A stretch of 64,000 nucleotides of DNA from Gemmatimonadota bacterium (GTDB taxonomy: Bacteria > Gemmatimonadota > Gemmatimonadetes > Gemmatimonadales > GWC2-71-9), in contig QHUZ01000041.1 in NCBI GenBank assembly GCA_003223395.1, positions 1 to 64,000 of the forward strand, written 5' to 3'. Positions 3,405 through 48,717 of the stretch are shown here, piece by piece. Under the pieces are notes generated by a model, which saw only the letters and a list, made by a program, of their open reading frames with translations, ran no database searches and had not been told where the DNA came from. The translations under genes were made by a program, and so were the position numbers. The number at the start of each line of letters is the position of its first letter. Within the stretch, counting starts at the first letter, position 1.

Positions 3405-6400
3405 ATGACCGACAAACGTTGGTTCGCTCGTTCCATCCTCACACTCGGGTTCGTCCTGCTCGGGCTGATTCCCGCCGCCGCGACCGCGCAGGAAGCGCCG
3501 ACGGTGTCCGGACAGGTGAAATCCACTCCGGGGGGCACGCCGCTCGCCGGCGCGATCGTCAGTATCGCCTCGCTGCGCGTGAGCGCCACGACGGATAACG
3601 ACGGCAGATATCGCCTCGTGCTCCCGGCGGGCAGCAGCGGCGCCGTGCAGCTCACCGTCCGTCGCATCGGCTACCAGACGAGCACGGTGCCCGTCACTCT
3701 CACCGGCACCTCCGTCGAGCAAGACGTCGCGCTCACAGAAGGCGCCATCGAGCTGACCCAGGTCGTCGTGACGGCGCTGGGCATCGAACGGGAGCCGCGC
3801 AGCCTCCCGTTCGCCGCGCAAGCCATTTCCGGTGCACAGCTGTCGGACGTCCCCACCAACAACGTGGTGTCGGCGCTCGGCGGCAAAATCGCCGGCGTGC
3901 AGGTGACGAGCTCGTCGAGTCCGTTCGGCTCGGCGCGCATCGTGGTCCGCGGCGCGAGCTCGATTCTGGGCCAGAACCAGCCGCTGATCGTCGTCGACGG
4001 CATTCCTATCGACAACTCCGCGGCCTCGAACAGCGGCTACGGCGGCGGCTCGCTCGGTGGTTACGACGTCGGCAACGCCGCGTCGGATATCAGCGCCGAC
4101 AACATCGCATCGGTAACGGTGCTGAAGGGTCCAAACGCGGCGGCGCTGTACGGCTCGCGCGCGGCCAACGGCGCGATCGTGTACACGACCAAGAGCGGGA
4201 AGGGCGCCCCCAACCAGGGTTTCGGCGTCACCGCCACGTTCGGCGCGAACATGGAGGCGCCGCTGCGGCTTCCCAACTACCAGAACCGCTACGGCCAGGG
4301 ATTCTATGGTGAGTTCGACTTCGTCGATGGTAACGGCGGCGGTGTCAATGACTACGCGGATGAGAGTTGGGGGCCGAAGCTCGATGGTCGCACGACCGGA
4401 TGTGTCTTCGTCGCCGGAACGACGACCTACGACACGAGCCATCCCTGCAACCAGTTCTTCGGCGCGGGTCCGTGGCAGGCGCACCCGAACAACGTGCGCG
4501 ACTTTTGGAACACGGGTCTCATGATCAACGCGAACGTCGCGGTGGCGCGCAGCAGCGATCGCAGCAACGTCCGCCTGTCCGTCGGCCGCACGAATGAAAG
4601 CGGCATGTATCCGAACAACACCAACAACCGGACGGACGTCGCACTCTCCGGCGGCACGCAGGTCTCCGATCACTGGAGCGCCGAAGCGTCGGTCAACTAC
4701 ATCAACGACGGCATGCAGAACCAGCCGGCGCAGGCGTATGAAGAGATCGACCCGATGCAGGGCTTCATTTGGTTCGGGCGGCAGGTGGACACGAGGATTC
4801 TGAAGAACAACATCTTCCGCAACCCGAACGATCCTTTCACGCAGCAGATCGTCGCGGGCGTTCCGGGTCTCCGCACCGATGCGCCCATTCCGTACAGCTG
4901 GAACTACAGCTATCACCCCAGCCCGTACTGGATGACGAATGTCAAGACGACCGACTACGCCCGCAATCGCGGGCTCGGCCACGCGGCCGTCACGTACAAG
5001 GTGAACGATTGGTTGAGCGTGACGGGGCGCTCGGGGCGTGACTGGTATCAAAACCAGTTCCGCGCGAATTATCCTGTCAACGACATCTCACCGTTTAACA
5101 GCGGCGGCTTGATCGATGTCGGCGAGACACGCAGCGAGACGAACAACGACTTCCTGATCACCGCCAATCGCACGCTCACGCCGTCGCTCAGCCTCACGGT
5201 GAACGCCGGCGGCAACCAGCGGAAGAACGACTTCAAGAGCAGCATCCAGCAGGTAAACGCGCTGGCGGTGCCGGGCGTCTACACCATGAACAACTCCGAT
5301 GGGCAGCCCGTTACCTCGACGCCAGAGTTTCACAAAAAAGTGAACTCACTGTACGGCTCGGCGACTTTGAATTACCGCGACTGGCTCAGCGTCGATATCA
5401 CCGGCCGCAACGACTGGTCGTCAACGCTGCCCAAAGGTGCGAACTCGCTGTTCTATCCGTCGATTGGCGCGGCCTTCGTCTTTACCGACGCCTTGAATCT
5501 GCGGAGTAACTGGCTGTCATACGGCAAGGTGCGGGCCAGCTGGACGCGCGTGGGTAACGACACCGATCCCTATCAGCTCGCCGCAATCTACGATTGCAAT
5601 CCGTGGGGCGGACGGCCGAGCTGCGACGCCGCCGATCGCCTGCCCAATCCGAACCTCAAGCCGGAACAAACCACCGGTGAGGAAATCGGCGCCGATCTCG
5701 GCTTCCTCCACGATCGGGTGATCTTCAACGCCACGGTCTACCAGAAATCGACGACCAATCAGATTCTGCCGGTCTCGATTTCGGCGGCGACCGGCTACAG
5801 GCAGAAGGTCGTGAACTCGGGCGAGGTGCGGAACCGGGGCATCGAGCTGGCGGCAACGCTCACGCCGATCGACCGCGGCGGTTTCCGCTGGAACACCGTG
5901 GTGAACTGGTCGAAGAACAGCAACAGGGTGCTGTCGCTATTCAGCGGCGTGTCGCAGATCATCGTGGGCTCGTACTGGAACGTCAACGTGACCGCTGATG
6001 TGGGGCAGCCATACGGCAACCTCACGGGCTACAGATGGCAGCGGGACGCGCAGGGTCACATCGTCGTCGGCGACGATGGATTGCCGATCCGCGACGCGAC
6101 CCAACGCGCGCTCGGCAACTACAACCCAGACTGGGTGGGTGGTATCAGCAACACGTTCAGCTACAAGCGCATGAGCCTCTCGTTTGCGATCGATGGCCAG
6201 ATGGGCGGCCAGGTGTACTCGGTCACGAAGTGGTTCGGCCAGTATTCCGGCGTGCTCGCGAACACGTTGGCCGGGCGTGAGCTCGATTGGAATAATCCGG
6301 GCTATATCGTGCCGAACGCCGTGTATGCGAACGGCCAGCCCGACACGACGCACGTGTTGGCGCAGGACTACTGGCACAACACGTTCTACGCCCAGGAGCC

Positions 6401-6653
6401 CGGCATCTTCGATGCCACGTACTTCAAGCTCCGCGAGGCGCGCCTGTCCTATGCGCTCCCGCCCTCGGTCGCGCGCTTCCTCGGCTTCTCGGACGCGACC
6501 TTCGCCGTTGTCGGGCGCAACCTGATCCTATGGGCCAGGCAGCCGACCATCGATCCCGAAACCGCGTTCGACACGAGCAATCGTCAGGGTGTCGAAAACG
6601 GCCAGCTGCCGACCGCGCGCAGCATCGGCTTCACCATGTCCGTGCGGCCGTGA
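3405..6653 (+). CDS. SusC/RagA-family TonB-linked outer membrane protein
   Basis: 1082 aa. ATG 3405 is chosen because GAAGGAGGAA lies at 3391-3400 and a signal peptide starts there (hydrophobic core, then AATAQ). An in-frame ATG-less extension upstream is not coding-like. After the signal comes a carboxypeptidase-regulatory-like domain (about 30-110, with GQVKSTPGGTPLAGAIVSI), then the SusC plug (about 125-265) with SALGGKIAGVQV, PLIVVDGIPIDNS and VTVLKGPNAAALYGSRAANG, then a long 22-strand type barrel ending GFTMSVRP. It forms the barrel of a SusCD transporter that imports large ligands using TonB energy. Its SusD partner follows after 14 bases. No glycoside hydrolase is adjacent, so the cargo is unknown. 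Confidence 0.93.
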   Translation: MTDKRWFARSILTLGFVLLGLIPAAATAQEAPTVSGQVKSTPGGTPLAGAIVSIASLRVSATTDNDGRYRLVLPAGSSGAVQLTVRRIGYQTSTVPVTLTGTSVEQDVALTEGAIELTQVVVTALGIEREPRSLPFAAQAISGAQLSDVPTNNVVSALGGKIAGVQVTSSSSPFGSARIVVRGASSILGQNQPLIVVDGIPIDNSAASNSGYGGGSLGGYDVGNAASDISADNIASVTVLKGPNAAALYGSRAANGAIVYTTKSGKGAPNQGFGVTATFGANMEAPLRLPNYQNRYGQGFYGEFDFVDGNGGGVNDYADESWGPKLDGRTTGCVFVAGTTTYDTSHPCNQFFGAGPWQAHPNNVRDFWNTGLMINANVAVARSSDRSNVRLSVGRTNESGMYPNNTNNRTDVALSGGTQVSDHWSAEASVNYINDGMQNQPAQAYEEIDPMQGFIWFGRQVDTRILKNNIFRNPNDPFTQQIVAGVPGLRTDAPIPYSWNYSYHPSPYWMTNVKTTDYARNRGLGHAAVTYKVNDWLSVTGRSGRDWYQNQFRANYPVNDISPFNSGGLIDVGETRSETNNDFLITANRTLTPSLSLTVNAGGNQRKNDFKSSIQQVNALAVPGVYTMNNSDGQPVTSTPEFHKKVNSLYGSATLNYRDWLSVDITGRNDWSSTLPKGANSLFYPSIGAAFVFTDALNLRSNWLSYGKVRASWTRVGNDTDPYQLAAIYDCNPWGGRPSCDAADRLPNPNLKPEQTTGEEIGADLGFLHDRVIFNATVYQKSTTNQILPVSISAATGYRQKVVNSGEVRNRGIELAATLTPIDRGGFRWNTVVNWSKNSNRVLSLFSGVSQIIVGSYWNVNVTADVGQPYGNLTGYRWQRDAQGHIVVGDDGLPIRDATQRALGNYNPDWVGGISNTFSYKRMSLSFAIDGQMGGQVYSVTKWFGQYSGVLANTLAGRELDWNNPGYIVPNAVYANGQPDTTHVLAQDYWHNTFYAQEPGIFDATYFKLREARLSYALPPSVARFLGFSDATFAVVGRNLILWARQPTIDPETAFDTSNRQGVENGQLPTARSIGFTMSVRP

Positions 6654-10211: not shown

Positions 10212-13200
10212 TCAGAACGAATACCGCAGCGTCAGCTGCACCTGGTAGCTGCTGGCCAACGTGGATCGCGCGGCGAACGGCTTCGGATTCAGCGTCGCGG
10301 CATCGTACAGTCGAGTGTCGAAGGTAAACGTCGGAATCGACTGCGACAGGGGACCGGGGTTGCGTCCTGTCTGACTCAGCGCCGACTGGTTGTTGAAGAC
10401 GGGGCTGAGCGTGGGCAGTTTGATCTGGCCCCAGTGCGGATCGAGCAGATTGAGGAAGTTGAAGACGTCGAGCTGTAACGACAGCGCCTGGCCTCGGATC
10501 GACGGGATGGCCTGACGGATCGACAGATCCAAACGGTTCTGGAACGGCGAGCGGCAGCTGTTCCGCTCCATGATCCGGCCGCGCTGGCGGTCGAGACAGG
10601 GCTGTGACTTGATGAAGTTCTCGAACGCCTGGGCGGCCGCGACGTTCTGGACGAAGCCTGTTCCTACTCCCTGAATTCCAGTACCGATTTGAATCTCGTT
10701 CGGATCCTTGGCGTTGCGCGGGACGTAGATCGGGTCGTTGCCGTTGACGAGGTCGCCGTTGAGATCGCCGTTCGTCACATACACGAACGGGACGCCGGAT
10801 GTGCCCTCATAGTAAAGCGTGATATCGGTGCGGGATGGCAAGGTGTACGTCCCGTATGCCAGGATACGGTGCGGCCGGGAGAAGACCGATGTGGTGGCCT
10901 CAAGGTCGCTGTGCGCGACCGAGAGCTGCCGGCCGTTACGGAAGTTCGAGATCGCACGATCGGACGTGAGACTCTGGACGTCCATCGACTTGAGGTACGT
11001 GTACGCGGCGGTGGCCTCGAAGCGATTCGAGAACCGGCGGTGCAGCTGCGTCGAGATCGAGTAGTTGTAGTCCTTCGACTGGTTCGTCACTTCGATGATG
11101 CCTTCACTGAAGGCCACCCCGCGCAGCGTCCTCAGCCACCGCTGCAGGGTGTCGGTCACGACTCCCGTGGCGCTGATGGTGTCAGCGTAGAGCACTCGCC
11201 CATCGCGATCTGTGTACGGGACGCCCCCCACGAGCCGCGGACCCTTGAAATTCGCATCCTTGACCAGCACGCCATTGATCGCCTTGCGGTACATGCCCTC
11301 CACCGTCAGGACGAAGCCCGCGGGCAGCTCACGATCGAACCCGGCGGAGATGCCGAGGTACTGGGGATACTTGAAATTTGGATCCGTGATGTTGACGCCG
11401 AGCGTACCGGCTTGCCCGGGACCAGGCGCGGGCTGGCCCGCGCACGACGTGGGCAATGCGCTGACGTTCACGGTGAACGCAGGCACCGTCGCCGGCGTGG
11501 TGCACGCGAGCCGGACCAGACCGAGTCCGGTGTTCGCGTACGCATTCCCCAGCAGGATGTAGGGCGGGGGCCCCGTGAAGACGCCAATGCCGCCGCGGAT
11601 CTGATTCGCGGTACGCCCACCGGGATTGTAGTTGAACCCGATGCGGGGCGAAAACAGCACCGAGCTGCCCGGTTTCGTGCTGGTGTTCACCGTGAACGCA
11701 CCACCTGACGCGGAGTCGAGCTTCACCCGCAAGGTGTCGTTCTGTGTCGGGGTGTCGGGCAGCGTGGGTATGTCGGCGCGCAGCCCCGCCGTGATCGTCA
11801 GGCGATCGTTCACCGCCCACTGATCCTGGCCGTACAGGCTGAACACCTTGACGTGGAAGTCCGCCGGAATGTCGGCGGCCTTCTGGCTGTTCGCGTAACC
11901 GACCGCGTAGCCGGCGGCCCGGCCGGCGATCAGGCTGTCGGTGTTGAAGAACTTGTACACGCCGAACGAGCCCTGCGCGAAGTTGTTGAAGATGTGCGTG
12001 AAATCGAGCCGCCCCCCGAAGGTGAGCGTGTGCGCGCCGCGGGGAATCGTGACGTTGTCCACCGCCTCGAAAATCGTCTGCTTGAGCAGATTGCCGGGCG
12101 AGAACTGCTCGGTGCCGAACGTGACCGAGCGGCGGAGGCCGCCGACCAGCACGCCGACCGTGATCTCCGGCGCGTCGACCGGCACGATACGCTCGTCCTT
12201 GATCGTGTTGTAGCCGATGATCAGCTCGTTCGAAATGCCGCTGGCGAAGTTGGAGTACAGCTGCGCCGTCGTGGAGTTGTTTTTCGCGTCGCGCTTGAAC
12301 GCGTTCGTCGAGTAGCGGAAGCCGGAATTCTGCACGGTCGGGTCCGCATTGAACGTGTTGACGTTGCGCGAGAAGTCGTCCTGCACGTCGTGGTTGATGA
12401 TTTGGCGGACCACGAAGCGATGCACGGGAGAGATCTGGAAATCGAGCCGTCCGAACAGATTCGTGAGCGGCGTCTCCTTCTCGACGGGAGCGGTCGAGCC
12501 AGGATTGAAGCCGTAGGTCCCCATCGCCGTGCTAATACGCGTCAGCGTGTCCAACGGAATGACGGGATCGTCGGGCGCGGGAGACGGCTGACCCGCGAGG
12601 TAGTATGGGCCCGCGGCGGGGTCGGTCCGCTGCTGCCATTCGGGCGCGATGAAGAACTGCAGCCGGTCCTTGATGATCGGCCCGCCCAGATTGAAGCCGT
12701 ACTGCTTCACATTGAACGCCGGCGTGCGGAGCGGCACGCCGACGAGCTGCACGCCTTCGAGCGGATCGCTGTTGCGGTACGTGAAGAGCGCGCCGCCGTG
12801 AAGGACGTTGGTCCCGCTCTTCGTGACCGCATTCACGAGCATGCCGGCGAAGCTGCCTTGCCGCACGTCGGTGGGCGTGAACATGACGCGGAATTCCTTG
12901 ACCGCATCCAGCGAGATGATCTTGCCGCCGGCGCTCCCGCCCGGCACGCCACCCGTGGCGCCGAGGTTGAAGCGCTCGCTCTGGTTTGCGCCGTCGATGG
13001 TAATCGTATTGAAGCGGTTGTAGGCGCCGGCGCCGCTCGCGGCGCCGCTGGCCGGGTAGACGACCTGCGGCGCGAGCTTCAGCTGATCGATGAAGTCGCG
13101 GCTGAAGGTCGGGATCCGCTGTACCAGGGTGTCGGAGATCTGGGTGGAAATCCCTTGCCGTGTCGGCGCGAAGTCCGGAGTCACCTCACCCAGGATCGGG

Positions 13201-13574
13201 ACGGCCGCGAGCTCGATGGCTTGCGGGGTGAGCTGCGCGTCCACGCGCGTGGCCTCGGAGAGCCGCACGTCCACCTGGTCGCGGGTGAGCGGCTGGAATC
13301 CGATGGCCCGCACCGCGACGGTGTAGGGACCGCCCACCTCGAGACCCTGCACGAGATACTGGCCGTTGGCGCGCGTGCGCACCGACGTCGTGAACCCGGT
13401 GCCGCGATTGGTGACTTGTACCGCCGCCTCACCGACGGGCTGGCCCTGCTTATCCGTCACCTTCCCTGAGATCGCGCCGGTTGTCACGCCTTGGGCTCGT
13501 GCGACGCCCGTGCCGAGCATTGTAAAGAACGCCGCGGCCACGAGGGCGCGGCCAGAGCCAACGATCCAGCGCAT
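10212..13574 (-). CDS. TonB-dependent receptor with carboxypeptidase-regulatory domain (Oar-like)
   Basis: 1120 aa. ATG 13574 is preferred over the longer frame start at 13640 because GGAGAGG precedes it and a signal peptide (hydrophobic core, then GVARAQG) begins there. Residues about 28-120 form a CarboxypepD-regulatory domain (GAISGKVTDKQGQPVGEAAV). A plug follows with NTITIDGANQSERFN and ISLDAVKEFRVMFTPTDVRQG. The rest is a long barrel whose last strand ends VQLTLRYSF with the C-terminal aromatic expected by the BAM machinery. The plan matches Oar-type outer membrane receptors: long barrels with a peptidase-regulatory N-domain, often linked to peptide or protein substrates. It is monocistronic and has no SusD partner nearby. 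The ligand is unknown. Confidence 0.88.
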   Translation of the reverse strand: MRWIVGSGRALVAAAFFTMLGTGVARAQGVTTGAISGKVTDKQGQPVGEAAVQVTNRGTGFTTSVRTRANGQYLVQGLEVGGPYTVAVRAIGFQPLTRDQVDVRLSEATRVDAQLTPQAIELAAVPILGEVTPDFAPTRQGISTQISDTLVQRIPTFSRDFIDQLKLAPQVVYPASGAASGAGAYNRFNTITIDGANQSERFNLGATGGVPGGSAGGKIISLDAVKEFRVMFTPTDVRQGSFAGMLVNAVTKSGTNVLHGGALFTYRNSDPLEGVQLVGVPLRTPAFNVKQYGFNLGGPIIKDRLQFFIAPEWQQRTDPAAGPYYLAGQPSPAPDDPVIPLDTLTRISTAMGTYGFNPGSTAPVEKETPLTNLFGRLDFQISPVHRFVVRQIINHDVQDDFSRNVNTFNADPTVQNSGFRYSTNAFKRDAKNNSTTAQLYSNFASGISNELIIGYNTIKDERIVPVDAPEITVGVLVGGLRRSVTFGTEQFSPGNLLKQTIFEAVDNVTIPRGAHTLTFGGRLDFTHIFNNFAQGSFGVYKFFNTDSLIAGRAAGYAVGYANSQKAADIPADFHVKVFSLYGQDQWAVNDRLTITAGLRADIPTLPDTPTQNDTLRVKLDSASGGAFTVNTSTKPGSSVLFSPRIGFNYNPGGRTANQIRGGIGVFTGPPPYILLGNAYANTGLGLVRLACTTPATVPAFTVNVSALPTSCAGQPAPGPGQAGTLGVNITDPNFKYPQYLGISAGFDRELPAGFVLTVEGMYRKAINGVLVKDANFKGPRLVGGVPYTDRDGRVLYADTISATGVVTDTLQRWLRTLRGVAFSEGIIEVTNQSKDYNYSISTQLHRRFSNRFEATAAYTYLKSMDVQSLTSDRAISNFRNGRQLSVAHSDLEATTSVFSRPHRILAYGTYTLPSRTDITLYYEGTSGVPFVYVTNGDLNGDLVNGNDPIYVPRNAKDPNEIQIGTGIQGVGTGFVQNVAAAQAFENFIKSQPCLDRQRGRIMERNSCRSPFQNRLDLSIRQAIPSIRGQALSLQLDVFNFLNLLDPHWGQIKLPTLSPVFNNQSALSQTGRNPGPLSQSIPTFTFDTRLYDAATLNPKPFAARSTLASSYQVQLTLRYSF

Positions 13575-13645: not shown

Positions 13646-14776
13646 TTAGGTGGGTGCTTTACGCAGCAGATACACGGCTGCGACGCCAACGAGAATATTC
13701 GGCGTCCACGCCGCGAGCATCGGGGGCAACACGCCTCCCGCACCGACTGCTTTTGCCAGCTGAAACATCAGCAGCACGATGAACGTCGTCGCGAGGCTCG
13801 CCGCGACCCCCCAGGCCGCGCCGCTCTTGGGACTCGAGATCGCGAGCGGCGCGCCGAACAGCGCGATCAGCAGGCAGATGAACGGAATCGCGATCTTGAG
13901 CGCGAGCTCGACCTGCAGCTTCTTGGCGTTCGAGCCGCTGCGTGTCAGGGCATCGATATAGCGCCGCAGCTCCCCGTAGCGCATTTCGTCCGGCGCCTTC
14001 GGCTCGGCGAGCAGGTCCACCGGGCGCTCCGTCATGGTGCGCGTCTGCAATGAATCGAACTCGAAGGCCCGCTCGCCCCCGGGCTCGTTGCCGGCCATAT
14101 AGCGCAACGTCCCCCGCAGCAGCGTCCACCGCGGGCGCGGCGTGCCGCTGTCGCGGTAGATCGCGCGCTGCGCTGCCAACACGATCGTGGGATAGGCTGC
14201 GCCGGACCCTTCGCGCTCCAGCATCAGATCCGTCATTTCGTGCGTGCGGAGCTCGAGCGCGCGAATCGCGTACACCCAGCCGCCGTCGGCGCGGTACACG
14301 AAGTTGTAGCGCGAGCTCGTGGACCGAATCGCCTTCTCGCCCAGCATCTCGAGGCGCCGCGACGTGGCGACAGGTGCGATCTCGCCGAGCAGCAAGCCGG
14401 CGATGAAGGCGGCGCCGGCCGCGCCGAACAGCGGGCGCACGAGCCGGTGGAACGAGATCCCCGACGCCTTCGCGGCCGTCAGCTCGGAATGCCGGCCGAG
14501 CGAGCCCACCGTAAAGACCGTCGCGAACAGCACCGAGACCGGCAGCACGAGAAACATCTTCTCGGGCAGGTCGAAGACGTACGACAGCGCCACAGCGCCC
14601 GGCTTGATCCCGCGCGCCATGTAGGTGTCGAGCTTGTCGGTCAGATCGATCACGATCGTGAGAATCGGAAAGCCGAGCAACGTGATGAGGAAGACGCGCA
14701 GCCACTCGCTGAGCAGGTACCGGTCCAGGGTCCGCAGTGTGATCTGCGGAATGCGGAACACCGCGCGCACGCTCAC
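13646..14776 (-). CDS. lptG: LPS export ABC permease LptG
   Basis: 376 aa YjgP/YjgQ-family protein. GTG 14776 is chosen because it overlaps the lptF stop as GTGA and gives the canonical start ITLRTLDRYLLSEWLRVFL. A longer frame start at 14920 would overlap lptF by about 150 bases with non-family sequence. Three N-terminal helices (with the coupling stretch LTAAKASGISFHRLVRPL), a periplasmic jelly-roll of about 150 residues and three C-terminal helices (IAIPFICLLIALFGAPLAI) are visible. With LptF and LptB it extracts lipopolysaccharide from the inner membrane. It is second in a two-gene operon with lptF. Confidence 0.9.
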   Translation of the reverse strand: MSVRAVFRIPQITLRTLDRYLLSEWLRVFLITLLGFPILTIVIDLTDKLDTYMARGIKPGAVALSYVFDLPEKMFLVLPVSVLFATVFTVGSLGRHSELTAAKASGISFHRLVRPLFGAAGAAFIAGLLLGEIAPVATSRRLEMLGEKAIRSTSSRYNFVYRADGGWVYAIRALELRTHEMTDLMLEREGSGAAYPTIVLAAQRAIYRDSGTPRPRWTLLRGTLRYMAGNEPGGERAFEFDSLQTRTMTERPVDLLAEPKAPDEMRYGELRRYIDALTRSGSNAKKLQVELALKIAIPFICLLIALFGAPLAISSPKSGAAWGVAASLATTFIVLLMFQLAKAVGAGGVLPPMLAAWTPNILVGVAAVYLLRKAPT

Positions 14777-16257
14777 AGCCGAGCCCGAATCTTTCCCACC
14801 CACCCGAACAGCGCTTCCTTCAGCTCGTCCCAATCCCCCCCGTGCGCGGTGCTGCCGGCGCGTCGCACGGAGAGGAGGAGCGGGATGCCGACGGCCAGGA
14901 AAATGAGATTCGGCGTCCACATCGCGAAGAACGGCGGCACGATGAGCCGGTCCCCCAACTCCTCGCCGCCGATGAGGCCCACGTAGTACACCGAAAAGAC
15001 CGCGAGGCTCGTGCCGATCACGAGTCCGACGCCGCCCCGCGGGTACCGGATCGCGAGCGGCATGCCGAGCAGCGCGAAGATCACGCAGGCGACGGAGATC
15101 GCCAGCTTCTTGTGAATCTCGACTTCGTAGATCGCGGCCCGCTGGCGCGCGGCCCGCAGCCGCTGGCTGTACGCCGACGGCGCCTGCGCGGTGTACGTGA
15201 GGTTGGTGACCGTCCGCCGGGGCGATTGACCGGCCTGTGCCGCCTCCGCGGCCTCCGCGGCGCGGGGGGCAACCACGCGCTGGATCGCGTCGAGAAAGCG
15301 GCAGTACCGGCTCGGCGGCGGCGGTGCCGTGTCGATCGTGGGCGTCGGCAGCTGGGCGAGCTTCGCGACCCGGCGCAGCTCCGCCGACACCGCCGTGACC
15401 GCTTCGCGGCGGACCCGCGCGAGATCCTGGCGCGCGCGGGCGACCACGTCCTGCATCGCGCAGATCGTCATCTCGCGATCGCCGCGGTATTCGTCGTTCT
15501 TGGTCGCCTCGAACGTATTGCTGACGCCGGCGACCTTGATGCGATTGATCCCATAAAAGGTGCGGTTGAAATGCTGCGGATCGGTGCGCTTGATCTCGTG
15601 CATCTCGCCGTCGCGCAGCGTCAGGTAGAGATCGGTGCCGCCCTCGCCGTAGGCCATCCGGCCCGAGTCGGCCATGATGATCCGGCGCCGGTCGGGATCT
15701 TCCAGATCGTATATCGTCACATCCTTGAGGCCGTTGGTGGCGGGATCGATGCGGGCCGCGCGGAGGAAAAACTGCCCCGCCACGACTTCGTTGATTACCT
15801 GTTCCTTCAACTGAAACGTCGGCTTCTTACGCTGGATGTCGACGAGGAGCGTCCGCAGCTCGTGATTGGAGCGCGGCAGGATCTGGTCGTTCCAGAGGAA
15901 TGCGATCAGTCCGATCGCCGTCGCCCCGCCGAGCACCGGCACGAGGATGCGGCCCACACTGATGCCGCTCGCCTTCATGGCCGTGACTTCGTTGTCGGCG
16001 GCGAGGTGGCTGAACGTGTACAGCACCGCGACCAGCACGGCCATCGGCAGCGTCATCGCGACGATGAAGGGGATCGACAAGGCGAACACTTCGACGATGA
16101 CGCCCCAGGGCAGCCCCTTGCCGACGAAGTTGCCGAACTGTTTCGCGATCTGATTGACGAGCATCGCGAACGTGAGTGCCGCGAGCGCGTAGAGGAGCGG
16201 GGGAATGTGTTGCCGCAGGATGTAACGGCTCAGGATGCGCACGGTTGGTCGCGCCAT
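14773..16257 (-). CDS. lptF: LPS export ABC permease LptF, with an enlarged periplasmic insert
   Basis: 494 aa, same YjgP/YjgQ fold as its neighbour: helix 1 from RILSRYILRQHIPPLLYALA, coupling helix VTAMKASGISVGRILVPVL, jelly-roll, and C-terminal helices with LAISVACVIFALLGMPLAIRYP. Family members are usually about 360-400 aa. The extra length is an insert at about residues 260-380 that begins with a charged helical stretch (ARARQDLARVRREAVTAVSA), then Pro/Ala-rich sequence (TAPPPPSRYC, AAEAAEAAQAGQ). It pairs with LptG to export LPS. It is divergent from the SprA-like gene with only 30 bases between the two start codons. Confidence 0.9.
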   Translation of the reverse strand: MARPTVRILSRYILRQHIPPLLYALAALTFAMLVNQIAKQFGNFVGKGLPWGVIVEVFALSIPFIVAMTLPMAVLVAVLYTFSHLAADNEVTAMKASGISVGRILVPVLGGATAIGLIAFLWNDQILPRSNHELRTLLVDIQRKKPTFQLKEQVINEVVAGQFFLRAARIDPATNGLKDVTIYDLEDPDRRRIIMADSGRMAYGEGGTDLYLTLRDGEMHEIKRTDPQHFNRTFYGINRIKVAGVSNTFEATKNDEYRGDREMTICAMQDVVARARQDLARVRREAVTAVSAELRRVAKLAQLPTPTIDTAPPPPSRYCRFLDAIQRVVAPRAAEAAEAAQAGQSPRRTVTNLTYTAQAPSAYSQRLRAARQRAAIYEVEIHKKLAISVACVIFALLGMPLAIRYPRGGVGLVIGTSLAVFSVYYVGLIGGEELGDRLIVPPFFAMWTPNLIFLAVGIPLLLSVRRAGSTAHGGDWDELKEALFGWVGKIRARL

Positions 16258-16287: not shown

Positions 16288-19200
16288 ATGCGGCGTCTCG
16301 CCCAGCTAGTGGTACTCGCCCTCACGCTCGTCGTACCCCGGGTTCATGCGCAGGCTCCTGTGTACACGTTTGGCGTGCCACCACTCGTCCCGCCGCGCAA
16401 TCCGGCACTCGCGCCCGGCGGCAGACTGGGCGCGCGAGTCCCGCCGTCGATCCTCGCGCGCGCCTGGGCCGAACGCATACTCGCGCAGCGGCCCCCGCTC
16501 TTCGGTGCGCCCCCGTCTGTCGCGGTAGCGACGCCGCCCCTCGCCGCCCCTTCGCCGCCCCCCGCCGCCGCAGTTCCGTACGCAGATCTCGGGATGAACC
16601 TGAACCTTCGGCTCGAGCTGAAGGCAGACCAGTTCCGCAACCTGCGCTGTACCTCGCAGGAGTTGCAGGCGACCCTCTCGGGGTGCAGCTCGGGATTCCC
16701 GACGATCACGCCGAATCCGCAATACGCGATTCGCACCGCCGGGATCGTGGGCCAGCGACTGCATGTGGATGTGGACTTCGACAGCCAGCGCGAGTTCGAC
16801 GCCAACAACAACATCCACGTCTGGTACGAGGGGTTGGAAGACGAATTCTTGCGGCGGGTGGAGGCCGGCAACGTGACCTTCCAGGCGCCGGCCTCGCGCT
16901 TCATCACCGCGGCAATTCCCGCCAACAACTTCGGCGTGCAGGCGATCGCCCAGGCCGGTCCGTTGGAGCTCCGCGCCATCCTCGCGCAGCAGAAGGGCAA
17001 CGTCGTGAAGGACCGGTTCTACAGCGTCGGCGACGTCACGAGTCAGCCGCTCGATCGCGAGGCCCGCGATCTCGACTACGAGGCCGGCCGGTTCTTCTTC
17101 GTGATCGACCCCGCGGCGCTTCCCGGGTATCCCGCCGTCGACATCCTGCAGCTCGACCAGCTGCCGCGTCCCGATTCGCTCACCGTCGGCGCGCTGCGCG
17201 TCTATCGCCGCCGTGCGATCGCGCCCACGTCCAACGGCAACCAGAACGTGGGCGGCGTCCGCGCGGTCGCGTGCGGGCCCGGTCTCAGGGCGGTGGATTG
17301 CAGCGCGCAGCGCGAGGGTCCGTTCGAGTGGGAGGTCCTGCAGGAGGGCAAGGACTACTACGTCGATCCGACCGGTGCCTGGTTCGCCCTGGCCAACCGC
17401 CTCGATCAGAGCGACTACCTGGCCGTCTCGTACGTCACGGCGAGCGGTACCGATTCGATCGGCACGATTCCGGTCGACGCGAGCCGCGACACGGCGAAGG
17501 TCGATACCCTGCGGCTCGTGTATGACCCCAAGCCGGCGGTGAACGCCGCGTCGCCGACGTTCCGCTTCGAGATCCGCAGCGCGTATCGCGTCGGCGGCCG
17601 CGAGATCGACCGCACCAGCGTCGATCTCAACTTGAGCGTGAACCAGCGTGAACGCAGCGCTGCCGGCAAGACCTACCTGGAGCTGCTGCGCGTCGCGTTG
17701 GAAAACGACCCGACCCAATTCGATCAATACAACCGTCTGTTCCCGCGCACCCGCGATCCGAACCAGGGCGATCCGGTGCGCGATCTGTTCATCGTATTTC
17801 CGCACCTCGCGCCGTTCGCCGATTCGACGAAGCTGACCGCTGCCGAGCGCAACGACTCGTTGTACCGCACCCCCCGCGTGTATCTCACTTCGCAGGGGCC
17901 GCCGTCGGTCTTCGCGCTGCGCCTCCACGCCGAGGCGACCGCCTCCGCCGACCGGTCGACCCTGTCGCTCAACAGTTTCCAGATTCGCGAGGGCAGCGAG
18001 CGCATCTACGTGGGCAACCGATTGCTCACCCGGGAACAGGACTACACGATCGATTACACGACGGGGCAGCTGCAATTCAAGAACCCCGATGCGCTGTTCC
18101 AGGGCGGCGTCTCGCAGGTGCGCGCGCAGTTCGAGGAGCGAGCCGCGTTCGCGCTTGCGCCGACGACCACGTACGGACTGTCGGCGCGCTACGACCTCGG
18201 CGCCACGGGGCAGGTGAACCTGCTCGGCATCTTCCAGAGCGAGCAAAGCACGTTCACCCGGCCGCCGCTCGGATTCGAACCGTCGTCCGGCTTCATTGGC
18301 GGCGTATCCACCCAGCTGCGCTTCCAGCCCGAGTGGCTGACGCGGTTCATGAACGCGCTACCCGGCGTCAAGACGAGCGTGCCGTCGGCGCTGAGCGTGA
18401 ATGGCGAGCTCGCGATCTCGAAGCCGTCGCCGAACCGCTTCGGCCAGGCCTACGTGGAGGAATTCGAGGGGGGATCGGCGCGCTCCATCATCCTCACCGA
18501 CAACACGTGGCACTGGGGCAGCATCCCGACGTCGGTGCACGGCGTCGAACCGCTGGGGTTCAGCGGCGCCTTCGATCCCAACCAGGCGGCGTTCCTGACC
18601 TGGCAAAGCCTGCCCTACCGGATGAGCGGCGGGCAGCTCGCGCCGATCCAGTATCTGCCTCAGCAGATCGATCCCACGCTCCGCTTCACCGGCCAGGGGC
18701 AGGCTGCCGAGCCCGTGCTGTGGCTGACGTTGCAGCCGGACAGCGTGCTCGGGCTCGCCAACAACCGGCGTGGCTCGCCGACCTTCGGCCTGCCGAACTG
18801 GACGAGGGCCCCGCAGAACGCGCCGCGGTGGCGTTCGATCACGCAAACGCTCTCGGCCACGGGCGTCGATCTCTCGCGGGTCGAGTTCCTGGAGTTCTGG
18901 GTCTGGGAAGATGCCGGGCGCACCGCTCAGGCCAATGGCGCCACCGTGCTGTTCGATTTCGGGGGCGTCTTCGAGGATGCCATCGCCTTCACGCCGACGT
19001 CGTTTACCGTGAGCGCCGAGGGCGACACGACGTATGCCGGCATCCGGCGCACGGGCGTGGGCCGGCTCGACGACGAACGCGATCCGCGCACGCACACCTG
19101 GAGCGCGACGCTCAACGACGAGGGCATCCTCTCCGACCGCGTGGTGGACGGCATCCTCGATTCCACGCGCGGGGTGGTGATCGACACGCTGCCGCTCTGT

Positions 19201-22200
19201 TCCGCCACCGAAAACGGGCAACTCGTGCCGTACGCGCTGGGCGACATTCGGTCGCGCTGCGGCCGCCACAACAACGCCGTCGACACGGAGGATCAGGACG
19301 GCGACTTCGCGCTCGATTCGGTCGCCGGCGTGCGGACATCGGAGAGCTTCGTGCGCTACGCGTTCCCGATCGGCGATCCGCGCTACTTCGTCCGCGACGG
19401 CGGCAGGGATCCGGATGGTGCAGGATGGCGTCTATATCGAATTCCATTCCGCACCGACACGCTGCAGATCGGGACGCCGAGCCTGCGGCAGGTCCAGGCG
19501 CTGCGGATTACCGTGGTCGCTCCGGCGCCGGTCGGCCCCGAAGCCGCGCTGCCCTTTGCGCTGTCTCGCGTGCGGCTCGTCGGGAGCTCCTGGGTCAAGC
19601 GCAGCGACACGCCGATCGCCGGCATCGGTGGCGATCGCGGCACTGGGCTCGGCGAAGTGGTCGCGTCGGTCGTCAGCACGGAGAACCAGGACCTCGGCTA
19701 CACCTCGCCGCCCGGTGTCACCGACGAAGCCGGTCGCCGCGATGCGGCGTTTCAGATCGGGGCGGCCGAGATCAACGAGCGGTCCATGCGCGTACTCGCG
19801 CGCGGGCTCGCGCTGGGCCAGAGAGCCGAAGCGTATCTCCGCTTCACGACCGAGGGCGACAAGAACTTCCTGAAGTACCGGACGCTGCGCGTCTGGGCGC
19901 GCGGGCGCGGCCCGGGATGGGAGGAGGGCGATCTCGAGTTCTTCATCAAGGCTGGGAAGGATCAGGACAACTTCTACATGTACCACGCGCCCGCGCGCAC
20001 GACCTCCTGGGAGCCCGAGGTCGTGGTGCAGTTCGAGCGCTGGCTGATCCTCCGCGCGCGCATCGAGCAGGCGTGGCTGCGCGGCGACACGGCACAGATC
20101 TATCCCGGCTGCCCCGACTCCTCACTCCTGACTCCCGACTCCTCCTACGTCATGTGCGACGGCCCGTACATCGCGCACGTGCGTGATCCGGGGACCGCGC
20201 CACCCAACCTGTCACGTGTCCAGGAGATTGCGGCGGGCATGTGGCGGGTCGGAACCAGCGTGGTCGTGGATCCGGGGGAGCTCTGGGTCGACGATATCCG
20301 TTTGGGCGACGTCGTGCGCGAGATGGGCGCGGCGGGTGCGATCGATATCGCCGTGGCCGCTGCCGATGTCGCCGATCTCGCCATCAGCGTGTCGCGGCGC
20401 GACGGGCAGTTTCGCCAGCTGACCGACGATCCGTCGTATGTAACGGACAACAGCGCCAATATCAGCGGCACGCTGCGCGTGGACCGGTTCCTCCCCGATC
20501 GCTGGGGACTCTCCGTGCCGGTGACGTTCCAACGCAGTCTCATCGCCAGCGATCCCTTCTATCTCAGCGGCACGGACCTGCGGGCCGACGCCCTGCAGGG
20601 CCTCCGGACCCCGCGCACGAGCTCTGCGAGCTACGCATTTTCGGCTCGGCGAATCCGCCAGGCGAGCAAAGGCATCGCGCGCTGGTTGCTCGACCCGGTC
20701 TCGCTGTTCGGATCGTACGCGAACGGCGATACGCGCACGTCGTTGTCGCGCGCGAACGGCTCGAGCTACGCCTTTAGCCTCGACTATACGATGGCGCCGA
20801 ACGCCTCGGTCGTCCGGGTCGGCGGCAAAGCGCTGCGGCTCAATCCTTCACGGATCCATTTCCGCAGCGGGATGGTGGGCACCGATGCGGAGCGCTTCAC
20901 CTTCCTCGTGCCGATTCAGTCAGCGAGCGACACCGCGCCTCCGGCCGTCTCGCAGACCCGCGCGTGGCAGAACGCGGGCGGCGTGCAGCTCACACCCGTG
21001 GCGGGCATGCAGCTCGGCGTCGATGCCGTCTCCACTCGTGATCTCCGCGATTACGGCGACTCGACCACGATGGGCCGGCTGATCCGGCAGCAACGCGCGT
21101 CGTTGTTCGGCAATGACGTCGGTCTGGAGACGCAGCGCCTGGTCACGACGTCGCTGTCTTTGAGTCCCCGGGTGGGCACCTGGATTCGGCCGCGGGCGTC
21201 CGTCGGCTCGTCGTTCGCGTTCACGCGCGACCCCAACGCTCGCGAGCCGCGGCGAGCGGAGGGCGATACGGCAGGGCCGTTCCGGGTGCCGGCGGCGTTC
21301 AGCAACGCACGCCGCTTCGAGACCGGCGCGCAGCTCGACACGCGCCGTCTGGCGCAGGCCGTCTTTGGTGACTCGTCCGGGGCGGCGCGCTGGCTCGGCC
21401 ACATCACCGGTCTCGACGTGACCTACAGCGCGCAGCAGGGGTCGGTGTTCAGCCGGGCAACGGACACGCCGAACGCGGGCTACCAGCTGGCGCTGGGCGG
21501 ATTCGACGCGTTCCGGCAGGTCGATGGCCAGCTTGCCACGTCGGCGACGCAGACCACCAGCCTGTCCACCGGCGGCGTGGCGGTCCTGCCGCTCGGCCTG
21601 CGCGCCAATGCGACCTACCGTCTCACCCGCGGCATCATCTGGACCCTGCGGGCTGAGGAGCAGGTTCCGATTCGCAGCCGGACGCAGGAGTGGCCCAATG
21701 GGACGATCAGCTGGTCGTTCTCGCCGCGGCAATTCGTCGGTCGGCTGCTGTCGAACGTCAACGCCCGCCTGGGTTATCGTCGCGCGGAATCGATCAATGA
21801 ACAGCCGACGTTCGGTGTGGCGATCCCGGGTGGTGTTGCCGTGAACAGCACGATCGACAGAGTGTTGACGCCATCGGCGTCGGTCACGTGGGCGGGTGGG
21901 GTCTTTACGACGTTCGATATGTCGCGAACCACGTCGGATCGGTTCAGCGCCGGTAACCTGTTTCGGACTGTGCGTGATGCGCACAACACCACCGTGACGT
22001 TCTCGTTCCGGCCTCCCACGAAGGGCCGCTGGCGTTCCAACATTCGCACGACGGCGGGGTATTCCGTGGCGGCCAATACGACCTGTTTGCGGCGCGCAGG
22101 GCAGGACGTCTGCGTGCCGTATGTGGACAGCAAGCAAACGCAGGCTCAGCTTACGATGGACACCGACCTGCCGACCAACATGAGCGCGGGACTGCAGATG

Positions 22201-22302
22201 GCTTACGTCCTCAACGAGGAGCGCCAAACGAACCGCAAGATCTCGCAGTTTGTCATTACGGCGTTCGTCCAACTTTCCACCAGCGTGGGGCAAATCCGAT
22301 GA
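16288..22302 (+). CDS. sprA: SprA/Sov-like giant outer membrane protein (type 9 secretion translocon homologue)
   Basis: 2004 aa. An open frame extends further upstream, but that part is antisense to lptF/lptG. ATG 16288 is followed by a signal peptide ending PRVHAQAPVY. Features matching SprA: an N-terminal Pro/Ala-rich segment, a repeated strand-rich unit with VGNRLLTREQDYTIDYTTGQ and a following VRAQFEERAAF, then QAYVEEFEGG (the 'EFEG' landmark), WRSITQTLSATGVDLSRVEF (sheet with FWVW) and a C-terminal region of many amphipathic strands. In Bacteroidetes, SprA is the 36-strand outer-membrane channel of the type 9 secretion system. Here it sits with LPS export genes and overlaps the M28/glutaminyl-cyclase-like gene. 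No PorV, PorM or gliding genes are in the window. The family is fairly sure; activity as a secretion channel is inference. Confidence 0.8.
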   Translation: MRRLAQLVVLALTLVVPRVHAQAPVYTFGVPPLVPPRNPALAPGGRLGARVPPSILARAWAERILAQRPPLFGAPPSVAVATPPLAAPSPPPAAAVPYADLGMNLNLRLELKADQFRNLRCTSQELQATLSGCSSGFPTITPNPQYAIRTAGIVGQRLHVDVDFDSQREFDANNNIHVWYEGLEDEFLRRVEAGNVTFQAPASRFITAAIPANNFGVQAIAQAGPLELRAILAQQKGNVVKDRFYSVGDVTSQPLDREARDLDYEAGRFFFVIDPAALPGYPAVDILQLDQLPRPDSLTVGALRVYRRRAIAPTSNGNQNVGGVRAVACGPGLRAVDCSAQREGPFEWEVLQEGKDYYVDPTGAWFALANRLDQSDYLAVSYVTASGTDSIGTIPVDASRDTAKVDTLRLVYDPKPAVNAASPTFRFEIRSAYRVGGREIDRTSVDLNLSVNQRERSAAGKTYLELLRVALENDPTQFDQYNRLFPRTRDPNQGDPVRDLFIVFPHLAPFADSTKLTAAERNDSLYRTPRVYLTSQGPPSVFALRLHAEATASADRSTLSLNSFQIREGSERIYVGNRLLTREQDYTIDYTTGQLQFKNPDALFQGGVSQVRAQFEERAAFALAPTTTYGLSARYDLGATGQVNLLGIFQSEQSTFTRPPLGFEPSSGFIGGVSTQLRFQPEWLTRFMNALPGVKTSVPSALSVNGELAISKPSPNRFGQAYVEEFEGGSARSIILTDNTWHWGSIPTSVHGVEPLGFSGAFDPNQAAFLTWQSLPYRMSGGQLAPIQYLPQQIDPTLRFTGQGQAAEPVLWLTLQPDSVLGLANNRRGSPTFGLPNWTRAPQNAPRWRSITQTLSATGVDLSRVEFLEFWVWEDAGRTAQANGATVLFDFGGVFEDAIAFTPTSFTVSAEGDTTYAGIRRTGVGRLDDERDPRTHTWSATLNDEGILSDRVVDGILDSTRGVVIDTLPLCSATENGQLVPYALGDIRSRCGRHNNAVDTEDQDGDFALDSVAGVRTSESFVRYAFPIGDPRYFVRDGGRDPDGAGWRLYRIPFRTDTLQIGTPSLRQVQALRITVVAPAPVGPEAALPFALSRVRLVGSSWVKRSDTPIAGIGGDRGTGLGEVVASVVSTENQDLGYTSPPGVTDEAGRRDAAFQIGAAEINERSMRVLARGLALGQRAEAYLRFTTEGDKNFLKYRTLRVWARGRGPGWEEGDLEFFIKAGKDQDNFYMYHAPARTTSWEPEVVVQFERWLILRARIEQAWLRGDTAQIYPGCPDSSLLTPDSSYVMCDGPYIAHVRDPGTAPPNLSRVQEIAAGMWRVGTSVVVDPGELWVDDIRLGDVVREMGAAGAIDIAVAAADVADLAISVSRRDGQFRQLTDDPSYVTDNSANISGTLRVDRFLPDRWGLSVPVTFQRSLIASDPFYLSGTDLRADALQGLRTPRTSSASYAFSARRIRQASKGIARWLLDPVSLFGSYANGDTRTSLSRANGSSYAFSLDYTMAPNASVVRVGGKALRLNPSRIHFRSGMVGTDAERFTFLVPIQSASDTAPPAVSQTRAWQNAGGVQLTPVAGMQLGVDAVSTRDLRDYGDSTTMGRLIRQQRASLFGNDVGLETQRLVTTSLSLSPRVGTWIRPRASVGSSFAFTRDPNAREPRRAEGDTAGPFRVPAAFSNARRFETGAQLDTRRLAQAVFGDSSGAARWLGHITGLDVTYSAQQGSVFSRATDTPNAGYQLALGGFDAFRQVDGQLATSATQTTSLSTGGVAVLPLGLRANATYRLTRGIIWTLRAEEQVPIRSRTQEWPNGTISWSFSPRQFVGRLLSNVNARLGYRRAESINEQPTFGVAIPGGVAVNSTIDRVLTPSASVTWAGGVFTTFDMSRTTSDRFSAGNLFRTVRDAHNTTVTFSFRPPTKGRWRSNIRTTAGYSVAANTTCLRRAGQDVCVPYVDSKQTQAQLTMDTDLPTNMSAGLQMAYVLNEERQTNRKISQFVITAFVQLSTSVGQIR

Positions 22303-23231
22303 GACGGTGCGTGGTGCGTCGTGCGTGGTGCGTGGGAATCGCGTTCGCGCTGGCGTGCCAGGCGCGCGCTGGGGGCGGGAGTGCGAGCGATACAAAGGGG
22401 AATCGGGAGTTCAACGGCCATACGGCCTTCACGTACGTCGAGCAGCAGATGGCGTTTGGCCCGCGGATTCCCAACACGCCGGGGCACGAGAACATGGGCG
22501 ATTGGCTGTTGTCGACCCTGCGGGCCCGCGCCGACACGGTCATCATGCAGGAGTTCCGTTGGGCCACAAAAAAAGGCGCGAACCTGCGCATGCGCAATTT
22601 CTTCGCGCGGTTTCGGCCTCAGGCGACCGACCGGGTCCTGTTCCTGGCGCACTGGGACACTCGGCCGTTCGCCGACAAGAGCCAGAACCTGGGACAGCAG
22701 CGCATGCCCGTGCCGGGGGCGAACGACGGTGCCTCAGGCGTGGCGGTCTTGCTCGGACTCGCGGACGTCCTGAAAACGACGGCGCCCACGATCGGCGTGG
22801 ATCTGTTGTTCGTGGACGGAGAGGACTACGGTGATTTCAGCGATTCCACGGAGACCCTGATCGGCGCGCGGTACTTCGCCAAACATCAGCCACGGGGCTA
22901 CACGACCCTCTATGCGGTCCTGCTCGACATGGTCGGCGACAAGGACCTGCAGTTCTATCAGGAGGGCTACTCGATGGCGGCCGCGCCAGAGGTCGTGCAG
23001 CGCGTCTGGCAGACGGCGGACCGGCTCGGCTATTCCAAGGTGTTCATTGCCCGTGCGGGCCAGACCCTGATCGACGACCATGTGCCGCTCCAGCAGGCGG
23101 GCATCAGGGCAATCGATGTGATCGACTTTGATTTCCCGTATCATCACACCACCGAAGACACGATCGACAAGGTCAGTGCCGAATCACTGCAGATTGTCGG
23201 TGACGTTGCTGTGGCTTTGGTGCGGCAATAG
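22299..23231 (+). CDS. M28-family glutaminyl cyclase-like enzyme (secreted)
   Basis: 310 aa. ATG 22299 overlaps the SprA-like stop (ATGA). The N-terminus is a signal (AFALACQ, possibly a lipobox). The Zn-dependent M28 core has HWDTRPFAD, GANDGASGVAVLL, FVDGEDYGD, LLDMVGDKD, IDDHVPLQQAGI and FPYHHTTEDT. The spacing and the strings 'HWDTRP-AD', 'DGEDYG' and 'LLDMVGDKD' are those of bacterial animal-type glutaminyl-peptide cyclotransferases rather than aminopeptidases. That enzyme turns an exposed N-terminal Gln into pyroglutamate. Downstream is a strong terminator, so it ends the sprA operon. An aminopeptidase role cannot be excluded by eye. Confidence 0.75.
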   Translation: MRRCVVRRAWCVGIAFALACQARAGGGSASDTKGNREFNGHTAFTYVEQQMAFGPRIPNTPGHENMGDWLLSTLRARADTVIMQEFRWATKKGANLRMRNFFARFRPQATDRVLFLAHWDTRPFADKSQNLGQQRMPVPGANDGASGVAVLLGLADVLKTTAPTIGVDLLFVDGEDYGDFSDSTETLIGARYFAKHQPRGYTTLYAVLLDMVGDKDLQFYQEGYSMAAAPEVVQRVWQTADRLGYSKVFIARAGQTLIDDHVPLQQAGIRAIDVIDFDFPYHHTTEDTIDKVSAESLQIVGDVAVALVRQ

Positions 23232-37398: not shown

Positions 37399-37421
37399 GG
37401 CCTTTGGCCTGACGCACGAGG

Positions 37422-37453
37422 GCGGCGGGGAAAACCCCGCCGCTCTTTTTTTT
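37422..37453 (+). terminator. Terminator of pilin gene 1
   Basis: GCGGCGGGG, loop AAAA, CCCCGCCGC, then TCTTTTTTTT. An AGGCC-TTT-GGCCT mini-palindrome follows the stop codon. The same 3' block follows pilins 2 and 3 and, diverged, pilin 4. Confidence 0.95.
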
Positions 37454-37578
37454 GGGGGCATGTAGCCCGGGGAGTCGCATATTGCCACAGTCATCGAGCT
37501 CCGCTGGCGCCCCTGAGGAGTCTCTGATTTGGCGTAAGTCAATACTCTGTTTACACTTCGCTCTTCGCGCCCCACATC

Positions 37579-37594
37579 GGGTATGATTAGTGCC
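37579..37594 (+). promoter_or_regulatory. Putative sigma-54 promoter of pilin gene 2
   Basis: GGGTATGATTAGTGCC: GG at 37580-37581, GC at 37592-37593, 10-base spacing, 62 bases before the ATG. Confidence 0.55.
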
Positions 37595-48087: not shown

Positions 48088-48717
48088 ATGGCATTCGGTT
48101 TCCCGACCGACCAACGCGGCCAGATCATGCTGCTGCTCGTCGTCGCGGCCCTGGCGGGGGGGTACTTCTTCTGGACGAAGAAGCACACGCCCGACATCGC
48201 CCAGATCGGCGCCGATAATCAGGAGTCCGACAGCCTCGAGCGGATCGTCGCGGCCGCCAAGGCCGACTTGGCGAGCGGGAGCATCGAGGATCTGCGCCGG
48301 CGCGTGGAAGAGTATCAGGGCTCGCTCGAGCTGATGCGCCGGCTGGTGCCGGATCGCAACGAAGTGCCGACGCTGATCGACGACATCTCGACGAAGGCCA
48401 AGGTGCGCGGGATCACCATCGGCAAGATTCAGCCGCTCACTCCCGAGCCCGGGTCGCCGTTCGACACCTACCGCTATCGGCTCGAGATCTACGGCCATTA
48501 CGATCAGGTCGGCGAGTATCTCGCCGACATCGCGTCGCTGCCGCGCATTATCGTGCCGCAGGACGTCGCGTTGTCAGCGGCGTCGCCGGCCGCGCAGAAG
48601 CTGCTCGGGGACACCGCGGGGGCCTTACTGCTGGCCGAGTTCTCGATTCGGACCTTCGTAAAATCGGCCGCGCCGCCGCCACCCAGAGCTGCGGGAGCGC
48701 CTCGTGCGCGCACCTAG
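48088..48717 (+). CDS. pilO: Type IV pilus assembly protein PilO
   Basis: 209 aa, six bases after pilN. Short cytoplasmic N-terminus, one transmembrane helix (IMLLLVVAALAGGYFFW), coiled coil (EDLRRRVEEYQGSLELMRRL), then the PilO core with VPDRNEVPTLIDDISTKAKV, YRYRLEIYGHYDQVGEYLAD and PRIIVPQDVAL. It forms heterodimers with PilN. The Ala/Pro-rich tail overlaps pilP by 14 bases. Confidence 0.92.
   Translation: MAFGFPTDQRGQIMLLLVVAALAGGYFFWTKKHTPDIAQIGADNQESDSLERIVAAAKADLASGSIEDLRRRVEEYQGSLELMRRLVPDRNEVPTLIDDISTKAKVRGITIGKIQPLTPEPGSPFDTYRYRLEIYGHYDQVGEYLADIASLPRIIVPQDVALSAASPAAQKLLGDTAGALLLAEFSIRTFVKSAAPPPPRAAGAPRART

What the first reader, a model, noticed from the sequence alone, without database searches (positions are those of the whole stretch)
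16288..23231. SprA-like channel translationally coupled to a glutaminyl-cyclase-like enzyme, with Ala|Gln signal peptides across the window
The SprA-like stop overlaps the start of an M28 protein with glutaminyl-cyclase signatures. Signal peptides of the SusC protein (ATAQE), the Oar-like receptor (ARAQG), SprA itself (VHAQA) and the PilP-like protein (VVAQQ) all place Gln at +1; PilQ (ALAG) does not. In Bacteroidetes a +1 Gln rule with pyroglutamate formation by a cyclase is established. The pairing suggests the same N-terminal capping of exported proteins here, tied to the type 9 secretion channel by gene order.
Basis: partly seen in the sequence, partly recalled or inferred. Interest (0 to 1): 0.7.

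Follow-up and report, generated by a model that had tools for sequence, protein, structure and literature searches.

The report
Channel gene paired with glutamine-capping enzyme
A bacterium outside the Bacteroidota (phylum Gemmatimonadota) makes a secretion channel and, from an overlapping gene, a probably lipid-anchored enzyme that very likely seals the exposed glutamine at the front of its exported proteins; the same gene pair recurs in several other phyla, so a trait described as exclusive to Bacteroidota looks older and wider.

Summary
sprA (16288-22302, TIGR04189, 491 bits) overlaps by ATGA a 310-aa M28 protein (22299-23231) that is a bacterial type II glutaminyl cyclase (QC), not an aminopeptidase: best PDB hits by sequence and fold are P. 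gingivalis, T. forsythia and Bacteroides QCs; zinc and catalytic residues and a lipobox Cys are kept. In 1.03 Mb of this Gemmatimonadota genome Gln is the commonest +1 residue after predicted signal peptides (37/94 by a caller blind to it; 55% after demixing; shuffled maximum 18%; E. coli 6%). The sprA-qc pair is conserved in Gemmatimonadota (51/53 genomes with both on one contig) and recurs in KSB1, Calditrichota, Neomarinimicrobiota and Zixibacteria. Across 150 genomes M28 QC and plant-type QC largely replace each other (p=4e-13). Against the strong reading: QC and SprA presence are independent across the phylum (odds ratio 1.0); no GldL motor was found; a Cupriavidus control also shows about 35-60% +1 Gln, so the excess alone does not prove a Q-rule; two genomes without detectable QC still show it. 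Best reading: general periplasmic N-terminal capping by a QC whose gene sits in an old sprA operon. Activity and pyroglutamate are untested.

The parts
16288..22302 (+). SprA/Sov-like outer-membrane translocon, 2004 aa
   Evidence: TIGR04189 491.5 bits vs cut-off 200; PF14349
16288..16353 (+). SprA signal peptide MRRLAQLVVLALTLVVPRVHA followed by Gln at +1 (codon 16351-16353)
   Evidence: +1 Gln also read at most other SprA junctions examined
22299..22302 (+). ATGA overlap: stop of sprA, start of the cyclase gene
   Evidence: exact ATGA in 12 of 22 related loci
22299..23231 (+). M28-fold type II glutaminyl cyclase, 310 aa; Zn ligands D143, D176, H283; catalytic E175, D210
22356..22358 (+). Codon of lipobox-like Cys20 of the cyclase (predicted lipoprotein anchor)
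   Evidence: Cys invariant in 29 aligned Gemmatimonadota QCs
3405..6653 (+). SusC-like TonB-dependent receptor, signal peptide ...ATA|QE
10212..13574 (-). Oar-like receptor, signal peptide ...ARA|QG
48704..49120 (+).
49117..51036 (+).
13646..16257 (-). Two divergent lptF/lptG-type permease genes upstream of sprA; an lptF/lptG gene also lies there in two KSB1 loci
   Evidence: Pfam LptF_LptG for 14773-16257; KSB1 L157, L174

Best explanation
The M28 gene is a periplasmic, lipid-anchored type II glutaminyl cyclase. Sec-exported proteins of this bacterium are cut by signal peptidase I so that most expose an N-terminal Gln; the cyclase converts it to pyroglutamate, which by analogy with P. gingivalis protects the protein from aminopeptidases. 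This is a general capping pathway for SPase I products, SprA included, and not a step of type 9 secretion. The gene sits behind sprA because the two form an old operon shared by several FCB phyla. Shown here: enzyme family, residues, gene order, +1 Gln excess. Inferred: lipid anchoring, cyclase activity, pyroglutamate on the proteins, protective role.
For: Sequence: best PDB matches are bacterial QCs at about 200 bits, against 45 bits for the best aminopeptidase. Fold: pLDDT 91.6; the 13 best PDB hits are Bacteroides/Parabacteroides/Porphyromonas/Tannerella QCs or their close kin and other bacterial QCs, TM to query 0.74-0.86, then animal QCs. Residues: D143, D176, H283, E175, D210 and the QC-type D-G step kept in 29 relatives (numbering and diagnostics from PMC7948796). 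+1 Gln: 37/94 blind, EM 55% (61-63% in the strict set), shuffle maximum 15-20%, Q peak exactly at +1; EM 39-69% in 8 other sampled Gemmatimonadota, E. coli 6%. One QC type or the other in 139 of 150 genomes, the two anti-correlated (odds ratio 0.05, p=4e-13), as reported for Bacteroidetes (PMC5837995). One plant-type QC inspected (G019) also has a lipobox.
Against: C. metallidurans megaplasmid shows 35-59% +1 Gln after removing paralogues, so the excess is not specific to this biology. G034 and G035 have no detectable QC of either kind yet 41-55% +1 Gln, on small samples. Trp298 of the Porphyromonas enzyme is His282 here, and PgTrp193 has no obvious counterpart. The home-made signal-peptide caller gave only 29% EM on Bacteroidota loci, where 71% is published, so absolute percentages are rough. 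No biochemical data.
Confidence: 0.78

Rival explanations
1. The cyclase is functionally tied to the SprA channel: it caps SprA itself and/or SprA-dependent cargo, so the operon is a functional unit of a type 9-like export module.
For: sprA upstream on the same strand in 51 of 53 Gemmatimonadota genomes with both on one contig and directly upstream in loci of KSB1, Calditrichota, Neomarinimicrobiota, Zixibacteria and one 'Bacteroidota' MAG; in Calditrichota and Neomarinimicrobiota the cluster goes on with PorV/PorQ-family genes. Predicted +1 Gln on SprA in most QC-linked orthologues examined. The single marginal CTD protein of this genome also reads ASA|Q.
Against: QC and SprA presence independent over 150 genomes; G129 has QC and +1 Gln without SprA; 20 Bacteroidota loci with at least 6 kb upstream show no SprA next to QC; published P. 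gingivalis data argue against a role of cyclization in type 9 targeting (PMC5837995).
Confidence: 0.25
2. The protein is an ordinary M28 zinc aminopeptidase and the +1 Gln is unrelated.
For: Pfam names it Peptidase_M28; NCBIfam gives only weak peptidase-type hits.
Against: All top PDB sequence and fold hits are QCs; Asp-Gly follows the zinc Asp where aminopeptidases have Asp-Asn/Asp; bacteroidal-QC Asp at the third zinc site.
Confidence: 0.04
3. +1 Gln is mainly a signal-peptidase or sequence-level preference found in many Gram-negatives; it is not specifically selected for capping, and the cyclase acts on few substrates.
For: Cupriavidus control 35-59% and S. meliloti 17-25% +1 Gln after removing paralogues; QC-less G034/G035 keep the excess.
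Against: E. coli 6%; the shuffle null removes composition effects; near-universal QC with two interchangeable types in Gemmatimonadota. The QC status of the Cupriavidus chromosome was not testable here.
Confidence: 0.18

Closest known systems
Porphyromonas gingivalis glutaminyl cyclase PG2157 / type II bacteroidal QCs (PDB 6QQL, 6QRO, 7D1E)
   Same: M28 alpha/beta fold, Asp/Asp/His zinc site, catalytic Glu/Asp, N-terminal lipobox Cys, about 35-39% identity over nearly the whole domain
   Different: Gemmatimonadota; gene overlaps sprA; PgTrp298 is His282, PgTrp193 not conserved
Bacteroidetes Q-rule (PMC5837995, PMC10653852)
   Same: Gln commonest +1 residue after SPase I sites; animal-type and plant-type QCs replace each other
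   Different: Described as exclusive to Bacteroidetes; Gemmatimonadota are not mentioned in those papers. Blind value here 39-48%, demixed 53-63%, against a published mean of 71% by SignalP
Type 9 secretion system (SprA/Sov, PorV, CTD cargo)
   Same: SprA over cut-off; one PorV-family protein over cut-off; one marginal CTD protein
   Different: No GldL found; SprA linked to QC, an arrangement not seen in the Bacteroidota QC loci examined
Plant-type (type I, PF05096) glutaminyl cyclase
   Same: Same predicted reaction; takes the place of the M28 enzyme in Gemmatimonas-like genomes
   Different: Unrelated beta-propeller fold; absent from this genome

Membership tests
Type II (M28-fold) bacterial glutaminyl cyclase | Sequence and fold closer to QCs than to aminopeptidases | tested here: met
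Type II (M28-fold) bacterial glutaminyl cyclase | Single-zinc ligands (PgD149, D183, H299) and catalytic Glu/Asp | tested here: met
   D143, D176, H283, E175, D210 invariant in 29 relatives; reference residues
Type II (M28-fold) bacterial glutaminyl cyclase | Gly/Ser, not Asn/Asp, after the zinc Asp | tested here: met
   D143-G144 invariant
Type II (M28-fold) bacterial glutaminyl cyclase | Active-site Trp (PgTrp298) before the zinc His (secondary feature, not required for metal binding) | tested here: inconclusive
   His282 in the window protein; Trp or His among close relatives
Type II (M28-fold) bacterial glutaminyl cyclase | N-terminal lipid anchor | tested here: met
   Cys20 in a lipobox-like context, invariant; prediction only
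Type II (M28-fold) bacterial glutaminyl cyclase | Cyclizes N-terminal Gln | not testable with these tools
   needs an enzyme assay
Q-rule | Gln at +1 in most SPase I substrates | tested here: met
   39% blind, 55% demixed, 61-63% demixed in the strict set; shuffle maximum 15-20%
Q-rule | Gln excess tracks presence of a cyclase and is absent elsewhere | tested here: inconclusive
   C. metallidurans megaplasmid 35-59%, its chromosomal QC status unknown; G034/G035 41-55% without a detectable QC; E. coli 6%
Q-rule | Pyroglutamate on mature proteins | not testable with these tools
   needs mass spectrometry
Type 9 secretion system | SprA translocon | tested here: met
Type 9 secretion system | PorV-family shuttle | tested here: met
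   C46:2029-2922, 125.5 bits vs cut-off 90; family level only
Type 9 secretion system | CTD-bearing cargo | tested here: inconclusive
   one hit, 24.8 bits vs cut-off 23
Type 9 secretion system | GldL/GldM motor | tested here: not met
   GldL model silent in this genome, rings in 3 Bacteroidota; GldM, GldK and GldN not searched; a diverged motor is possible

The most novel reading that the evidence does not exclude
sprA-qc is an ancestral export module of the FCB group: the cyclase is made together with the channel so that SprA, itself a +1 Gln protein, and what passes through it are capped as they emerge in the periplasm; Bacteroidota kept both genes but lost the linkage, and some Gemmatimonadota swapped the cyclase for the plant type.
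Probability: 0.25. Interest if true: 0.7.

Novelty: new variant of a known kind. Interest (0 to 1): 0.55.

Why it matters
The Q-rule has been called exclusive to Bacteroidetes, and its coincidence with type 9 secretion has been left unexplained. A QC operon with sprA in at least four other phyla besides Gemmatimonadota, with a +1 Gln excess in Gemmatimonadota, moves the trait back towards the base of the FCB group and gives a concrete genetic link to test. The Cupriavidus control is a warning that +1 Gln tallies alone should not be read as proof of capping.

Tried and rejected
First gene and signal-peptide callers under-called genes, mis-picked sites and counted prepilins; replaced. Bacteroidota loci as positive control gave only 29% EM from a small, mixed set: the caller underestimates there. 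'21 of 22 overlaps' not used as evidence, because any xTGA with x = A, G or T counts as a start; only exact ATGA (12 of 22) is quoted. Divergent QC in QC-less genomes: only weak M28 hits and, in G034 and G035, no PF05096. A PF05096-like hit on the Cupriavidus megaplasmid is a short beta-propeller-like protein, judged not a QC. Glassbacteria (0/4) and Poribacteria (0/3) loci carry a QC relative but show no +1 Gln; samples too small to conclude. Plain aminopeptidase reading rejected.

Full report
WHAT IS THERE. The window lies in a Gemmatimonadota genome (G000, 3.41 Mb in 123 contigs, window = C93:1-64000). sprA runs 16288-22302 (2004 aa) and its TGA overlaps the ATG of the next gene at 22299 (ATGA). 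It scores 491.5 bits against TIGR04189, cut-off 200. Two lptF/lptG-type genes diverge upstream; a helix-hairpin-helix protein and pilB/pilT-type genes follow.

THE ENZYME. The downstream protein (310 aa) is M28 by Pfam. Its nearest solved structures are bacterial glutaminyl cyclases, six of them at 193-206 bits; the best aminopeptidase scores 45. An AlphaFold model from 30 related sequences (pLDDT 91.6) matches P. gingivalis, T. forsythia and Bacteroides/Parabacteroides QCs best (TM to query 0.84-0.86, rmsd 1.4-2.0), then animal QCs; no aminopeptidase is among the first 50 apart from entries that PMC7948796 re-annotates as QCs. Against the residues given in PMC7948796, the zinc ligands (D143, D176, H283), the catalytic E175 and D210 and the QC-type Asp-Gly step are kept, and invariant in 29 relatives, as is a lipobox-like Cys20. 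So it is very probably a lipid-anchored periplasmic QC. His282 replaces the Trp of the Porphyromonas enzyme. Activity is inferred.

+1 GLN. A signal-peptide caller that never uses the +1 residue (except to forbid Pro) was run on about 1.03 Mb, 30% of the genome. Gln is at +1 in 37 of 94 predicted SPase I substrates; the next commonest residue has 9. Gln counts at other positions are 0-7, apart from 13 at +2, many of them off-by-one site picks. Demixing the site uncertainty gives 55% (61-63% in a stricter set), against a shuffled maximum of 15-20%. Eight other sampled Gemmatimonadota give 39-69%, all above their shuffle maxima; E. coli gives 6%. Named Gemmatimonadota loci give 60%.

A CONTROL THAT LIMITS THE CLAIM. 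High-GC Proteobacteria were added as controls. S. meliloti pSymB gives 17-27% and the C. metallidurans megaplasmid 35-60%, even after removing paralogues (35-59%). The window's genome is not distinguishable from C. metallidurans on this measure (Fisher p 0.57-0.84). Whether the Cupriavidus chromosome encodes a QC could not be tested. In addition G034 and G035, which have no detectable QC of either type, keep 41-55% +1 Gln on 10-15 proteins. The excess is therefore real, but not by itself proof of QC-based capping.

DISTRIBUTION. Over 150 Gemmatimonadota genomes the M28 QC is in 106 (one copy each), SprA in 106, the unrelated plant-type QC (PF05096) in 47. The two QC types are anti-correlated (14 both, 92 M28 only, 33 plant only, 11 neither; odds ratio 0.05, p=4e-13). 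An approximate hand count by genus still gives p about 0.004. The same mutual replacement is published for Bacteroidetes (574 animal-type, 507 plant-type, only 63 with both; PMC5837995). This suggests that most of the phylum needs a QC and supports a physiological role. In contrast M28 QC and SprA are independent (75/31/31/13, odds ratio 1.0). Genomes are related, so p-values are indicative.

GENE ORDER. Where QC and SprA matches are on one contig they lie within 6 kb on the same strand, QC downstream, in 51 of 53 genomes (the two exceptions are single-contig genomes of family f5). In the 22 related loci examined directly SprA's C-terminus abuts QC, with exact ATGA in 12. The pair also occurs in KSB1 (L157, L174), Calditrichota (L163, L173), Neomarinimicrobiota (L165, L172, L197), Zixibacteria (L181) and one 'Bacteroidota' MAG (L160). 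In L173, L165 and L197 PorV/PorQ-family genes follow within a few kilobases, which places QC in a type 9-like outer-membrane cluster there. None of 20 other Bacteroidota-labelled loci with at least 6 kb upstream has SprA beside QC (by tblastn with the window's SprA; sensitivity for Bacteroidota SprA was not separately tested). SprA orthologues linked to QC mostly carry a predicted +1 Gln.

TYPE 9 SYSTEM. This genome has one PorV-family protein over cut-off, one marginal CTD protein whose own signal peptide reads ASA|Q, and no GldL; the GldL model rings in three Bacteroidota. It is a SprA/PorV set without a recognisable motor, not a demonstrated T9SS.

LITERATURE. Papers found call the Q-rule Bacteroidetes-specific or exclusive, though Ignavibacterium album (77%) and a few Chlorobi were noted as high; Gemmatimonadota are not mentioned in either paper. 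No paper in the searched library combines Gemmatimonadota, or SprA with type IX secretion, with glutaminyl cyclase. A possible T9SS in Gemmatimonadetes has been mentioned. Absence from this library is not proof of absence.

VERDICT. Observation confirmed. Interpretation partly supported: QC identity about 0.95, capping of exported proteins about 0.78, specific functional tie to SprA about 0.25.

Noticed in passing
window 37030-40772: Four nearly identical type IV major pilin genes (37030-37398, 37583-38023, 38349-38717, 40377-40772) repeated in one pilus cluster, differing at a few residues.
   Followed up: partly
G001 (family f9 of the same phylum): 33 CTD-tail (TIGR04183) and 25 PorV-family matches but no GldL match: a large, possibly motor-divergent type 9 repertoire in a deep Gemmatimonadota lineage.
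   Followed up: no
C. metallidurans megaplasmid, L279-L282 and L284-L286: Unexpected +1 Gln excess (about 35-60%) in a betaproteobacterium, including porins starting QSSVTLYG and receptor-like binding proteins; not explained here.
   Followed up: partly
G034, G035 (family f5); L242-L261: No M28-type or plant-type QC detected, yet +1 Gln excess persists; possible third cyclase, gap in assembly, or chance in small samples.
   Followed up: partly
L222:15647-18038 (G000:C24): Only candidate CTD-bearing protein of the genome found; its predicted signal peptide ends ASA|Q.
   Followed up: partly
L157, L174 (KSB1) and Gemmatimonadota loci: lptF/lptG genes divergent from sprA-qc in both phyla, suggesting an older envelope-biogenesis neighbourhood.
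   Followed up: partly
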